Shown in pieces: positions 2,962 through 47,406 of a stretch of DNA of 49,293 bases (within the stretch, counting starts at the first letter, position 1; each line of letters begins with the position of its first letter). Under the pieces are notes generated by a model. The model saw only the letters and a program-made list of their open reading frames with translations, made no database searches and was not told the origin of the DNA. Origin of the DNA: Nitrospirae bacterium CG02_land_8_20_14_3_00_41_53 (GTDB taxonomy: Bacteria > Nitrospirota > Thermodesulfovibrionia > Thermodesulfovibrionales > SM23-35); assembly GCA_002780895.1 (NCBI GenBank), contig PEUB01000092.1, positions 1 to 49,293 of the forward strand, given 5' to 3'. The translations under genes and the position numbers were made by a program.

Positions 2962-5900
2962 ATGAGGTTCATCGGTCTTGATGCAGGCTCTGGTAGTGTG
3001 AAGCTTGTTATCCTTGATGAAAAAGGTAACAGGCTTTACAGTCATTACGAAAGGCACAAGGGGCTCCCGCTCAATGTTGCCCTCGAACTCCTTAAGACAG
3101 TAACGAGTAACAGGCCACTGGTCACTGGTCACTGGTCACTATCAATCACTGGCTCTGCCGGCAAGTTAATCGCTTCCATCCTTGGTATAGTATCTGTCAA
3201 CGAGATTGTCGCCCAGGCATATTCCACACACAAACTCTTTCCCTATATAAGGACGATAATCGAGATGGGAGGGGAGGATTCGAAACTTATACTCTTAGGT
3301 GAAAACGGCCGCTCTGTGAGAGACTTCTCCATGAATTCCGTCTGCGCCGCTGGCACAGGCTCCTTTCTCGACCAGCAGGCAGAAAGACTAAGGCTTACAA
3401 TAGAAGAATTCAGCGAGCTTGCGCTGAAATCAAAAAAGCCACCGAGGATTGCAGGAAGATGTAGTGTATTCGCAAAATCTGACATGATACACCTCCAGCA
3501 GATAGCAACACCCGTTGAAGATATTGTAGCCGGTCTCTGTTTTGCCCTTGCGAGGAACTTCAAAGGCTCTATATTAAAAGGCAGAAAGATGATACCTCCG
3601 GTATCTTTTCAGGGAGGAGTTGCAGCAAATAAAGGGATGGTCAGGGCCTTTAAGGAAATCTTCGAACTCGACGAGCTATTTATCCCTGAGGATTACGCAC
3701 TTACGGGAGCAATCGGCGCTGCTTTAAAGAACATGCATGAGGGCAGGATACAAAATTTTGACCTATCAAAGCTTGAGGAATTTCTAAAATTACCCAGGCC
3801 CATCGAGGCAGGGTACCCGCCCTTGATTGACTCTGATCAAGAATCAAGCATCACCCCCTCCCTCACCCTCCCCCCTCGAGGGGGAGGGCAGGGGTGGGGG
3901 GGCAGACCAAGCTCAGAACGAATTAAGGCATATCTCGGCATTGATATTGGTTCTATCAGCACTAATCTTGCTGTAATAGATGAGTATGGAAAACTCCTCT
4001 CAAAAAGATACCTTATGACAGCAGGCAGGCCTATAGAGGCAGTTAGACAGGGGCTTTCAGAGGTAGGTGAGGAGATTGGAGATAAGGTCCAGATAATGGG
4101 TGTTGGCACAACAGGCTCAGGTAGATACATGATTGCTGACTATGTTGGCGCTGATATGGTAAAGAATGAGATTACAGCCCATGCGGTAGCTGCGGTATTT
4201 ATTGATAAAACTATTGATACGGTCTTTGAGATTGGTGGACAGGACTCAAAATTCATATCACTTAAAGATGGCGTTGTCGTTGACTTCGAGATGAACAAGG
4301 CATGCGCAGCAGGAACAGGTTCTTTTCTCGAGGAACAGGCAGAAAAATTGAATATCTCGATTAAGGGAGAATTTGAAGAGTCTGCGCTTTCCTCTAAAAA
4401 TCCTTGCAGACTTGGCGAAAGGTGTACTGTATTTATGGGAAACTCCCTGTTGGCAAATCTCCAGAAAGGTGTTAACAGGAATGACCTTCTTGCAGGTCTC
4501 TCATATTCTATTGTCCAGAATTATATAAACAGGGTTGTTGCAGGAAAGGCGATAGGTGAAAATATAACTTTTTTAGGTGGTGTTGCCTTTAACAAAGCTG
4601 TTGTTGCTGCATTCGAGAATTACCTCGACAAAAAGATACCTGTTCCATCTCACCACGAGGTCGCTGGCGCAATAGGTATGGCATTAATTGCAATGAGAAA
4701 TGTAAAAGATAAGACTAAATTCAAGGGGTTTGAACTTTCAAAAAGGCCTTACGAGATATCATCATTTGAATGTAAAGGCTGCCCTAATATTTGTGAAATA
4801 AACAGGGTGAAGATTGCTGGCGAAACAGGCTTTCTCTTTTATGGAGGAAGATGCGAAAAATATGATATAAGAAAGAAAAAGACATCCAGCCTCCCCGACC
4901 TCTTTTCATTCAGAGATGAAATGCTGTGGAAAGAACATCTGCAAAGACACTCAATAGTCAATAGTCAACAGTCAGAAGTCAGCCCACCCACCCACCCCTC
5001 CCCCTCGAGGGGGGAGGGTAAGGGAGGGGGTGATAACTCCGAACTCAAAACTCAAAACTCAAAACCGAAGATCGGCATTCCCTATATCTTCTTCTTTCAT
5101 GATTATCTTCCTTTCTGGACAACACTTTTATGGGAGCTCGGATTTGATGTAGAGGTTTCTCCAAAGACGAATAGACAGATCATTAACCTCGGACTTGAAC
5201 GTCTTCTTTCAGAGGCGTGTTTCCCTGTGAAGGTTGCACATGGGCATATCAGCTATTTGCTTGATAAAAGTGTAGATACAATATTTTTACCGAGCTTTAT
5301 TAATCTCAACACACCAGAAGACCGCTTTGATAGGGGGTTTGCCTGCCCTCATATACAGACAATTCCTTACGTCTCAAAGGTTGCATTTGATGGAATAAAC
5401 ATAATTTCTCCGAAAATAAATTTAAGACTTGGCAAGAGATTTCTGTTAAACGAACTCAAGAATGCCTTTAAACCATTCGGCATAAGTAAATCTTCAATAT
5501 CTATAGCGATTGATAATGCACTTAAAGCGCAGGATGAGTTCAATAATGCTATAAAGGCAAAAGGTGATGAATTTTTATCATCAATTAAGGATATTACTAT
5601 CGCGATCATAGGAAGGTCGTATAATGCCCTTGACAATGGCGCAAATCTTGAAATACCTAAAAAACTTGCGGATCTCGGCATTTCTTCAATCCCCATGGAT
5701 TTCCTGCCACTCGAAAGATACACAATCGACAGTGAGTGGCCTAATATGTATTGGAGATCTGGTCAGATGATACTTAAGGCTGCAAGATTTATAAAAGATA
5801 CCCAAAATCTTTATGCTATTTATATAGGGAATTTTTTATGCGGACCTGACTCGTTTATTCTGAAATATTTCAAAAAGGAAATGGGCAGAAAACCCTTCCT

Positions 5901-10330: not shown

Positions 10331-11213
10331 AGTAATCGGAGTACGTTTCAAACCCTGTGGAAAGATATACGACTTTGAGGTAAACGGTATAGATGTAAAC
10401 AAAGGTGACCTTGTAGTCGTAGAGTCAGAGCTCGGCCTCAACATAGGCAATGTCGTCATTGATCGTCATACGGTGGAAGAGTATGAAAGAAAGCTGAAAA
10501 AGATTATTCGCAAGGCAACTGAAGAAGACCTTCATCAGAGACAAGAAAACAGGAACCTCGAGATTGAAGCTATGAATAACTGCCTTGAGAGGATAATGGC
10601 ACGTGGGCTTCCAATGAAGCTTATCTGGACGGAGGTAACCCTTGACAGAAGACGTATTATTTTCTATTTCACCGCAGAAAAGAGGATTGACTTCAGGGAG
10701 CTCGTCAAGGACCTTGCTGCAAAGTTCAAGACAAGGATAGAGATGAGACAGATAGGTGTTAGGGATGAGGCAAAAATGATAGGTAGTTTCGGGATATGTG
10801 GCAGGGAACTATGTTGTACAAGATTCCTGACATCGTTTGAACCTATTTCTATCAAGATGGCAAAGAGGCAGGAACTAGTCCTGAACACGGGTAAGTTATC
10901 CGGAGTCTGCGGAAGGCTCATGTGTTGCCTGGGATTTGAGTATTCTGAGACATTCCCAGAGGACGTTGCCCTGTCAGAGGAAAATTCCATGTCTATTTCC
11001 GAAGATGCAGAGCCACTTGAAATGATTGTCACCTCAAGTGACATTCTTGAAGAAGTAGAAGAACCTGTAGCCCAACCCGGTATTGTCGGGATTGACTCGC
11101 ACCGAGAGTCGCAACGCCCTGCGCCTCAACCTGAACAGCAAGAACATAAAGGAAAATACAAGAAGTTTAAAAGGCACAGGAAAAAACGCAACAGAAAACT
11201 TACTAACCAGTGA
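10323..11213 (+). CDS. ricT: PSP1-domain protein, RicT/YaaT family (start probably at the second Met of the ORF)
   Basis: Cysteine signature GICGRELCCTRFL and SGVCGRLMCCLGFEY; PSP1-like N-terminus; lysine-rich tail. Confidence 0.88.
   Translation: MPEVIGVRFKPCGKIYDFEVNGIDVNKGDLVVVESELGLNIGNVVIDRHTVEEYERKLKKIIRKATEEDLHQRQENRNLEIEAMNNCLERIMARGLPMKLIWTEVTLDRRRIIFYFTAEKRIDFRELVKDLAAKFKTRIEMRQIGVRDEAKMIGSFGICGRELCCTRFLTSFEPISIKMAKRQELVLNTGKLSGVCGRLMCCLGFEYSETFPEDVALSEENSMSISEDAEPLEMIVTSSDILEEVEEPVAQPGIVGIDSHRESQRPAPQPEQQEHKGKYKKFKRHRKKRNRKLTNQ
11084..11106. repeat. Family C dispersed repeat, intragenic in ricT
   Basis: tgtcgggattgactcgcaccgag; compare 14087-14110 and the reverse complement at 16506-16530. 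Confidence 0.65.
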
Positions 11214-12847
11214 GAAATAAGTTTTTCATTACCACACCTATATATTATGTAAATGACATCCCGCATATAGGCCATGCATATACAACTGTGGCAGCCGATA
11301 TCCTTGCGAGATATAACAGGGTAAAAGGCAAAAAGGTATTTTTTTTAACAGGCGCTGATGAGCACGGCCAGAAGGTTGAAAAGGCAGCGCAGGAGAAAAG
11401 CCGGTCACCAAAAGAGCATGCTGACCTTATGGTGGAGAATTACAAAACACTCTGGTCAAAACTCGATATTAAAAACGATGTCTTCATACGCACTACAGAT
11501 TCAGAACATGTAAAGACCGTACAATCGCTACTGCAAAAGTTATGGGAAAAGGGTGAAATAGAAAAAAGGTTATATTCGGGGTGGTACTGCATACCGGATG
11601 AACGATTCTGGACTGATAAGGAAGTCGTAACTGGTAATTGTCCGGATTGTAAAAGGCCTGTAGAACGTATTACCGAGGAAAACTATTTTTTCTTGATGTC
11701 AAAGTACCAGGAAAGGCTTTTAAAATACATTGATGAAAATCCGTATTATATACTTCCAGAAACACGGAAAAATGAGGTTCTCGGGTTTTTAAAAAATAAC
11801 CCACTCGGTGACCTCTGCATATCAAGACCAAAGCATAGACTTTCCTGGGGTATATCACTGCCTTTCGATGACAGCTTTGTAACCTATGTATGGTTTGATG
11901 CACTTATAAATTACTACTCAGCGACAAAGTATCTTGCCCCAGAACACAGAGTACAGGACACAGCCCCCCCCACCCAGCCCTCCCCCTCGAGGGGGGAGGG
12001 GAAGGGTGGGGGTGAAAATCTCACATCTGAAGACTGGTGGCCTCCCGAACATCACCTGATAGGTAAGGACATCCTAATAATACATGCTATTTACTGGTCA
12101 ACTATGCTGATGGCACTTGAATTATCTCTGCCAAAAAACATCTTTGCACATGGGTGGTGGACTGTTGAAGGGAAGAAGATGTCCAAGTCTGTTGGCAATG
12201 TTGTCGACCCTAATAAAGTTGTGGAAAAATACGGTGTTGATGCCTTCAGATACTTTCTTTTCAGGGAAGTACCATTTGGCCTTGATGGAGACTTCTCTGA
12301 TGAGGCAATGATAAAACGTATCAACACTGACCTTGCGAATGACCTTGGAAATCTTCTATACAGGACACTGGTAATGATCGAAAAGTATTTTGAAGGAAAA
12401 ATCCCTCAGCCGCCTCCTTATGACATTAATGGATCAGTTGATGTGCTTAGAGAAATTCACCTTAAAAATCGCATAGAGAGTATCAAGGAAAAATTTGATG
12501 TTTTAATGGAAAAATTATCGTTTGGTCACGCCCTCGATAAAATCTGGGAGGCAATTAATGATGCAAATAAATTAATCGAAGATGAAGCTCCATGGAACCT
12601 GAGGAAGGCAAATAATATTGATAAACTCTCAAGTGTGCTTTATACACTTGCTGAGGCGATTAGAATCATAGCGGTCTATCTCTTCCCTTTTATGCCAGCA
12701 GCAGCAGAAAAGATGTGGGAACAGCTTAATGTTGAAGAAAAACTATCAAAAATAAATCTTGATAATGGCACAAGATGGGGAAGACTGAAACCCGGGACAA
12801 CGATCAGAAAAGGTACGGCACTGTTTCCAAGAATAGAAAAAGGATAA
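11210..12847 (+). CDS. metG: Methionyl-tRNA synthetase
   Basis: FITTPIYYVNDIPHIGHAYTT, CPDC motif, KMSKSVGN; GTG start overlaps the ricT stop. Confidence 0.97.
   Translation: MRNKFFITTPIYYVNDIPHIGHAYTTVAADILARYNRVKGKKVFFLTGADEHGQKVEKAAQEKSRSPKEHADLMVENYKTLWSKLDIKNDVFIRTTDSEHVKTVQSLLQKLWEKGEIEKRLYSGWYCIPDERFWTDKEVVTGNCPDCKRPVERITEENYFFLMSKYQERLLKYIDENPYYILPETRKNEVLGFLKNNPLGDLCISRPKHRLSWGISLPFDDSFVTYVWFDALINYYSATKYLAPEHRVQDTAPPTQPSPSRGEGKGGGENLTSEDWWPPEHHLIGKDILIIHAIYWSTMLMALELSLPKNIFAHGWWTVEGKKMSKSVGNVVDPNKVVEKYGVDAFRYFLFREVPFGLDGDFSDEAMIKRINTDLANDLGNLLYRTLVMIEKYFEGKIPQPPPYDINGSVDVLREIHLKNRIESIKEKFDVLMEKLSFGHALDKIWEAINDANKLIEDEAPWNLRKANNIDKLSSVLYTLAEAIRIIAVYLFPFMPAAAEKMWEQLNVEEKLSKINLDNGTRWGRLKPGTTIRKGTALFPRIEKG
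11963..12015. repeat. Intragenic GC-rich palindromic element, family B
   Basis: agccccccccacccagccctccccctcgaggggggaggggaagggtgggggtga; encodes PPTQPSPSRGEGKGGG in MetG. Right half is identical over about 34 nt to the copy in cheW2. Confidence 0.88.
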
Positions 12848-18335: not shown

Positions 18336-18450
18336 TTTTTTAACACCAAAAGGAAGATAAAACCACAATATAAAAGACTCTTCCAAAAAATAAATGCTTA
18401 TTATATAATAATAAGAGATTATTATAGGTCAGAGCAGGAGAGGTGGTCGC

Positions 18451-18474
18451 CCCGCACTTCTGAAAAAAGTGCGG
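18451..18474. repeat. CCGCACTT..AAGTGCGG hairpin element in rnpB (P3 position)
   Basis: cccgcacttctgaaaaaagtgcgg; exact reverse complement of 18565-18588. Confidence 0.85.
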
Positions 18475-18564
18475 AGAGGAAAGTCCGAACTCTACAGGGC
18501 AAGGCGCTCCATAATACGGAGTGGGGGTAACCCCAAGGAAAGTGCCACAGAAAGGGAAACCGTC

Positions 18565-18588
18565 CCGCACTTTTTTCAGAAGTGCGGG
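18565..18588. repeat. Inverted copy of the same hairpin element in rnpB (likely P12 position)
   Basis: ccgcacttttttcagaagtgcggg. Confidence 0.85.
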
Positions 18589-18710
18589 GTAAGGGTGAAA
18601 AGGTGAGGTAAGAGCTCACCAGTTGAGATGGCAACATCTTAAGCTTGGAAAACCCCGCCTTGAGCAAGGTCGAATAGGTTCCGCCTGGAGAAGGGCCCCT
18701 TCGAATCCCC

Positions 18711-18729
18711 GTCCCGACTTTGTCGGGAT
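18711..18729. repeat. Third short palindrome in rnpB
   Basis: gtcccgactttgtcgggat, between P15 and the P16/P17 3' strand. Confidence 0.6.
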
Positions 18730-18836
18730 CGAGGAGGCGGAATGGGTAGCGACCGCAAGAGTCTGGTGGCAACACCGGACCTTAGATGAATGACCACGCA
18801 AACAGAACTCGGCTTATAGCCTGCTCTGACACTTAA

Positions 18837-47370: not shown

Positions 47371-47406
47371 AAAGATAGGGCACTAAAATTTTAGTGCCCT
47401 ATCTTT
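47371..47406. terminator. Perfect 36-nt palindromic terminator
   Basis: aaagatagggcactaaaattttagtgccctatcttt, downstream (minus strand) of the 47416-47832 gene and upstream of dapL. Confidence 0.8.

What the first reader, a model, noticed from the sequence alone, without database searches (positions are those of the whole stretch)
18428..18830. RNase P RNA decorated with three mini-palindromes, two of them exact inverted copies
18451-18474 and 18565-18588 are perfect 24-nt reverse complements, each also a self-hairpin (CCGCACTT-loop-AAGTGCGG). They occupy what look like the peripheral P3 and P12 helices. A third palindrome (gtcccgactttgtcgggat) lies at 18711-18729. The two copies could pair with each other over 24 bp, giving an alternative rnpB fold that might couple distant domains or act as a switch.
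Basis: partly seen in the sequence, partly recalled or inferred. Interest (0 to 1): 0.75.

Follow-up and report, generated by a model that had tools for sequence, protein, structure and literature searches.

The report
Travelling mini-palindrome in RNase P RNA
The RNase P RNA gene of this Nitrospirota bacterium carries two inverted copies of a ~26-bp palindrome in the outer helices P3 and P12, and relatives carry the same palindrome in other helices of RNase P RNA, in tmRNA, in 23S rRNA and once inside a protein gene, so it looks like a tiny dispersed repeat tolerated in structural RNAs rather than a regulatory switch.

Summary
rnpB is intact (RF00010, 270.9 bits), and 18450-18474 and 18565-18589 are a perfect 25-nt inverted repeat (shuffles reach at most 9). 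They are the native P3 and P12 helices, which covary across 16-17 family members; only their sequence is foreign. The palindrome CCGCACTT-loop-AAGTGCGG occurs in 4 of 20 family genomes (1-4 copies each; reversed-pattern control 0): rnpB P3, P9 and P12, the tmRNA PK3 stem, the 23S H98 region, a conserved mRNA leader, one intergenic place, and an integrase gene. There, empty-site alignment shows an in-frame 30-bp insertion, a 26-bp palindrome plus a duplicated TTTA. Best reading: a dispersed mini-palindrome that replaces outer hairpins of stable RNAs; one rnpB copy was made from the other, inverted. The switch is unsupported: P3-P12 complementarity is unique to this genome, absent in the sister, and would break core helices, although a nested model does favour the 25-bp duplex by 16 kcal/mol. 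The mobilising machinery is unknown; no half-site flanks the 11 RAYT-like genes examined. Side finding: protein-only RNase P (HARP) and rnpB are almost mutually exclusive in this order, and one relative keeps a truncated rnpB remnant.

The parts
18431..18831 (+). rnpB, RNase P RNA class A, complete
   Evidence: cmscan RF00010 270.9 bits, model 1-367 of 367
18450..18474 (+). P3 helix made of the palindrome (copy 1; loop CTGAAAA); arm 1 of the 25-nt inverted repeat
18565..18589 (+). P12 helix made of the inverted copy (copy 2; loop TTTTCAG); arm 2 of the inverted repeat; hairpin spans 18564-18588
18711..18729 (+). Second palindrome type, TCCCGAC-TTT-GTCGGGA, in the P17 region; near-identical to the P12 hairpin of relatives (21-nt identity CCGTCCCGACTTTGTCGGGAT with G015 P12)

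Best explanation
P3 and P12 of this rnpB are two paralogous copies, in opposite orientation, of a ~26-bp dispersed mini-palindrome, (C)CCCGCACTT-loop-AAGTGCGGG(G). Shown: the copies are identical including the asymmetric loop; the same palindrome sits in several structural RNA genes of relatives; and it was inserted in frame into an integrase gene in one of them. Inferred: it spreads at low frequency as a non-autonomous palindromic insertion or by hairpin-to-hairpin template switching. It persists mainly where a hairpin tip is already present and harmless (rnpB P3, P9, P12; tmRNA PK3; 23S H98), because a self-pairing insert keeps the host RNA's architecture. In this genome one rnpB copy was made from the other; a palindromic stem gives no preferred orientation, so the copy came out inverted. 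The RNA most likely folds as an ordinary class A RNase P RNA with both hairpins as outer helices.
For: 25-nt identity including the 7-nt asymmetric loop against at most 9 in shuffles. Family survey: the pattern is in 4 of 20 genomes, 11 exact sites, reversed control 0 in all. Seven of the 11 lie in rnpB, tmRNA or 23S, which make up about 0.2% of a genome; this count includes the two sites given in the finding. G006 has it in P3, P9 and P12 of one rnpB. G010 has it in place of the tmRNA PK3 stem and at the 23S H98 position. The G010 integrase has a 30-bp in-frame insertion, CCCCGCACTTCAGCAAAAGTGCGGGG plus TTTA duplicated, against empty sites in G004 and G001. G309, another family of the class, has it in rnpB P12. 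P3 and P12 are covarying helices with free sequence: P12 pairs 1-7 standard in 14-17 of 17 genomes, P3 pairs 1-7 in 12-16 of 16, many pair types.
Against: Copy numbers are low (1-4 per genome) and no transposase is tied to it: no CCGCACTT half-site lies near any of the 11 Y1/RAYT-like genes looked at. Only one insertion has a clean empty site and a target duplication; the stable-RNA cases are in-place replacements, not simple insertions. Loops differ between most copies while stems agree, which is odd for recent copies. The leader copy (C143) belongs to a hairpin conserved in all 19 family members with the gene, so that copy is not an insertion and the leader may be the source. G001's P12 copy probably came by recombination of part of rnpB, so it is not an independent gain. 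A 10-bp stem is expected to recur by chance among hairpins of very large collections, so the scattered hits carry little weight.
Confidence: 0.66

Rival explanations
1. RNA switch or domain coupling: P3 and P12 pair with each other over 25 bp, or kiss through their complementary 7-nt loops, giving an alternative rnpB fold with a regulatory role.
For: The loops CUGAAAA and UUUUCAG are exactly complementary. In a nested nearest-neighbour model the duplex state is favoured (-183.6 against -167.4 kcal/mol).
Against: The complementarity is not conserved in any relative, including the sister G008. The model leaves out the P4 and P6 pseudoknots, tertiary contacts and the protein. Local hairpins form first during transcription (general knowledge). 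The duplex would break core helices of what should be the only RNase P here, since no HARP was found in G000.
Confidence: 0.05
2. Purely intragenic event: P12 was overwritten by an inverted copy of the P3 hairpin (or the reverse) by template switching or gene conversion within rnpB, with no mobile element involved.
For: Loop identity ties the two copies directly to each other. The P17 hairpin matches the ancestral P12 hairpin of relatives over 21 nt, so within-gene hairpin copying may have happened more than once.
Against: It does not explain the same stem in the tmRNA, 23S rRNA and integrase gene of G010. It is probably the last step of the story, not the whole.
Confidence: 0.17
3. Shared functional RNA motif: the hairpin is a binding site, for example of the small Lys-rich protein whose mRNA leader carries a related conserved hairpin, and was acquired by rnpB, tmRNA and 23S because it binds that factor.
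For: The leader hairpin YYCCGCAYTT..AARTGCGGR is conserved in 19 family members. In G006 the leader and rnpB P9 hairpins differ by one base over 28 nt.
Against: Most family members with the leader and the protein have no such hairpin in rnpB or tmRNA. A binding site does not explain an in-frame insertion in an integrase.
Confidence: 0.05
4. Ordinary P3 and P12 helices whose similarity is coincidence.
For: P3 and P12 are native and hypervariable.
Against: 25 nt of exact inverted identity against at most 9 in shuffles, and recurrence in other RNA genes.
Confidence: 0.02

Closest known systems
Rickettsia palindromic elements (RPE)
   Same: Short palindromic repeats found in protein genes in frame and in RNA genes, with no known mobiliser (own knowledge; Amiri 2002 is cited in PMC5799277)
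   Different: RPEs are about 100-150 bp and many per genome; here ~26 bp, 1-4 copies, Nitrospirota, mostly in stable RNA helices
Repetitive hairpin-forming elements and double-hairpin elements of mitochondrial DNA (PMC2800124)
   Same: Tiny hairpins (8-18 bp stems) that also sit in rRNA genes at non-critical places and are not removed from the RNA
   Different: Mitochondrial and mainly intergenic; here bacterial, concentrated in rnpB, tmRNA and 23S
STRR sequences in rnpB of heterocyst-forming cyanobacteria (Vioque 1997, cited in PMC2858038)
   Same: Genome-dispersed short repeats lodged in RNase P RNA
   Different: STRRs are tandem repeats, not single palindromes that replace a helix
REP sequences and RAYT (TnpA_REP) transposases
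   Same: Palindromes of similar size; RAYT-like Y1 transposase genes are present in this genome
   Different: REPs are many and extragenic and flank their RAYT; here few, mostly within RNA genes, and not near the RAYT-like genes examined
Haemophilus uptake signal sequence AAGTGCGGT
   Same: Shares the letters AAGTGCGG
   Different: No AAGTGCGGT in the window; not a high-copy motif here

Membership tests
RNase P RNA class A (RF00010) | Full-length covariance-model match above the gathering score | tested here: met
   270.9 bits against 100, model 1-367
RNase P RNA class A (RF00010) | P3 and P12 conserved as helices | tested here: met
   Covariation across 16-17 family members
REP/RAYT system | Palindromes flanking a RAYT gene | tested here: not met
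   No half-sites within the 11 RAYT-like neighbourhoods of G000, G010 and G006 examined
REP/RAYT system | Many extragenic copies | tested here: not met
   1-4 copies per genome, most inside RNA genes
Rickettsia palindromic elements | Self-complementary insertion read in frame in a protein gene | tested here: met
   30-bp in-frame insertion in the G010 integrase with empty sites in G004 and G001; one case only
Rickettsia palindromic elements | RPE size class and Rickettsia host | tested here: not met
   About 26 bp, in Nitrospirota MAGs; RPE sequences themselves were not compared
Cyanobacterial STRR in rnpB | Tandem short repeats | tested here: not met
   The two copies start 113 nt apart and are inverted
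Haemophilus-type uptake sequence | Over-represented AAGTGCGGT | tested here: not met
   0 in the window; 5 AAGTGCGG/CCGCACTT half-sites in 49 kb, 4 of them in these hairpins

The most novel reading that the evidence does not exclude
Helix swapping: a lineage-wide process copies one palindromic hairpin in place over existing hairpin tips of the most abundant structured RNAs (RNase P RNA, tmRNA, 23S rRNA), by an RNA- or single-strand-DNA-templated exchange, keeping function while renewing the helix sequence.
Probability: 0.3. Interest if true: 0.75.

Novelty: new variant of a known kind. Interest (0 to 1): 0.52.

Why it matters
It gives a concrete route by which outer helices of ribozymes and rRNA change sequence in one step while staying paired, which is usually credited to slow compensatory mutation. 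The G010 integrase insertion, with its duplicated target, suggests that a ~26-bp palindrome with no coding capacity can move; if confirmed it would be among the smallest mobile sequences.

Tried and rejected
Haemophilus-type uptake sequence: rejected. RAYT/REP: RAYT-like genes present but no palindrome near the 11 examined. HARP making rnpB dispensable in this genome: rejected, no PF08745 match in G000. Independent gain in G001: weakened, its P8-P13 tract looks recombined from a G000/G006/G008-like rnpB. The G004 palindrome CCCGACTAAAAGTCGGG, found while testing the third palindrome, belongs to a longer repeat (GTGAAGCTCCCCGAC...GCTTCCATGNAAGGAAAA) and is unrelated to rnpB. The IMG/VR scan gave no answer.

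Full report
OBSERVATION. A covariance-model match to RNaseP_bact_a covers 18431-18831 (270.9 bits, full length). The repeat finder gives one inverted pair, 18450-18474 and 18565-18589, 25 nt and 100% complementary with 90 nt between the arms. Each arm is itself a hairpin, CCGCACTT-CTGAAAA-AAGTGCGG and CCGCACTT-TTTTCAG-AAGTGCGG. The Rfam alignment places them at P3 and P12. Sixty composition-preserving shuffles of this rnpB gave at most 9 nt. The third palindrome (18711-18729) is in the variable P16/P17 region.

NATIVE HELICES, BORROWED SEQUENCE. In the family, P3 and P12 are always helices but their sequence is nearly free. P12 pairs 1-7 are standard in 14-17 of 17 genomes with several pair types; P3 pairs 1-7 in 12-16 of 16. 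The commonest P12 is of the TCCCGAC-TTT-GTCGGGA type, for example in G015. The window's P17 palindrome has that same sequence; G006 and G008 carry near-identical ones in P17. P12 and P17 therefore share one hairpin type, and P3 and P12 of this genome share another.

THE PALINDROME ELSEWHERE. CCGCACTT-N-AAGTGCGG occurs 3 times in this 2.0-Mb genome: P3, P12 and C143:23769. Of 20 family genomes 4 have it, with 11 exact sites, while the reversed pattern gives none. Seven of the 11 are in rnpB, tmRNA or 23S. G006 has it in P3 and P9 and, with one mismatch, in P12 of one rnpB. In G010 it replaces the stem of the tmRNA PK3 hairpin with almost no change in length; the loop still reads UUCCCA, which could pair with the downstream UGGGGA (the pseudoknot itself is inferred). 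In G010 23S rRNA it sits in the position of H98, where G013, G016 and G019 have short GGGAGCAAUCCC-type hairpins (H98 is assigned from the position in the model). A contig binned as WOR-3 (L079) has the same palindrome at the same 23S position. Outside the family, G309 has it in rnpB P12.

A REAL INSERTION. The G010 integrase reads ...ALKFY-PALQQKCGVY-YGTM... in one open frame. Aligned with G004 and two copies in G001, the difference is exactly 30 bp: a 26-bp palindrome CCCCGCACTTCAGCAAAAGTGCGGGG plus a duplicated TTTA. It can also be read as 28 bp plus a 2-bp duplication. This is the clearest evidence that the palindrome moves, and it is a single case.

LIMITS. The C143 copy lies in a 5' leader hairpin present next to the same gene in all 19 family members with that gene, so it is inherited and may be the source. 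G001 P12 looks like part of a recombined P8-P13 tract, since the sister G015 differs there while G000, G006 and G008 match. Y1/RAYT-like genes occur in 19 of 20 family genomes, but the 11 neighbourhoods examined have no half-site, so no mobiliser is named. The genomes compared are mostly draft assemblies from metagenomes.

SWITCH IDEA. Forced P3+P12 hairpins give -167.4 kcal/mol and the 25-bp duplex -183.6 in a model without pseudoknots. The duplex is therefore a possible misfold, and the exactly complementary loops could nucleate it. Against a role: no relative keeps the complementarity, and the duplex breaks helices needed for activity. No HARP gene was found in this genome, so rnpB is presumably essential.

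MECHANISM COMMITTED TO. A dispersed mini-palindrome entered rnpB; one hairpin was then copied onto the other site in inverted orientation; both are kept because a self-pairing tip does no harm (0.66). That two copies are identical and that relatives carry the same stem in other RNA genes is shown; the route of movement and the neutrality are inferred.

KNOWN KINDS. It works like Rickettsia palindromic elements and mitochondrial hairpin elements (PMC2800124), and resembles the STRR case in cyanobacterial rnpB (Vioque 1997, cited in PMC2858038). It fails the REP/RAYT and uptake-sequence tests. I found no paper describing this palindrome; the held library is incomplete.

SIDE FINDING. In 60 relatives rnpB and HARP are almost mutually exclusive: both in G029 and G056 only, neither in G046 and G054 (rnpB was searched with strict filters, and the partial G016 rnpB is counted as present). 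In the family only G003 and G010 have HARP, and they are the two without an intact rnpB. G010 keeps a remnant of about 185 nt in the orthologous place, lacking P3 to P15. A 2024 review says HARP replaced the RNA enzyme only in a small thermophilic group and otherwise coexists with it (PMC10941002).

Noticed in passing
G010:C93:18658-18835 (L223) and G010:C78:20268-20822 (L249); 60 relatives: Protein-only RNase P (HARP, PF08745) and rnpB are almost mutually exclusive in this order, and G010, which has HARP, keeps a truncated rnpB remnant lacking P3-P15 between the same neighbour genes as the window's rnpB.
   Followed up: partly
window 11978-12000: A palindrome CCCTCCCCCTCGAGGGGGGAGGG lies in frame inside the methionyl-tRNA synthetase-like ORF 11210-12847 (peptide PPTQPSPSRGEGKGGG); similar repeats at 3866, 4996, 45551 and just after rnpB at about 18843.
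   Followed up: no
G000:C143:23766-23800 (L003 about 1498-1532) and orthologues L226-L244: A leader hairpin YYCCGCAYTT..AARTGCGGR is conserved 5' of a small Lys/Ala-rich ORF (MAKAAKKAAKKATKKTAKKK) in all 19 family members with the neighbouring gene, with compensatory changes (e.g. CACAC/GTGTG in G003).
   Followed up: partly
L028 (G001 rnpB), about 100-130 nt from P8 to P13: The G001 rnpB tract matches G000/G006/G008 and not its close sister G015, suggesting partial recombination of rnpB between species; G001 P3 also carries a large multi-hairpin insert.
   Followed up: partly
L016, L019, L029, L295 (rnpB of G029, G007, G004, G309): P3 or P12 of other relatives carry longer composite repeat inserts (e.g. 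GCACC..GGTGC, AGTTAGAAGTGAAAAGT.., GAGGC..GCCTC), so rnpB outer helices are repeated landing places.
   Followed up: no
L178-L193 (G004, G006, G016): A dispersed repeat GTGAAGCTCCCCGACTAAAAGTCGGGGCTTCCATGNAAGGAAAA, about a dozen copies in G004, possibly an insertion-sequence end.
   Followed up: no
window 47371-47406: A 36-nt palindrome with a 16-bp perfect stem, AAAGATAGGGCACTAAAATTTTAGTGCCCTATCTTT.
   Followed up: no
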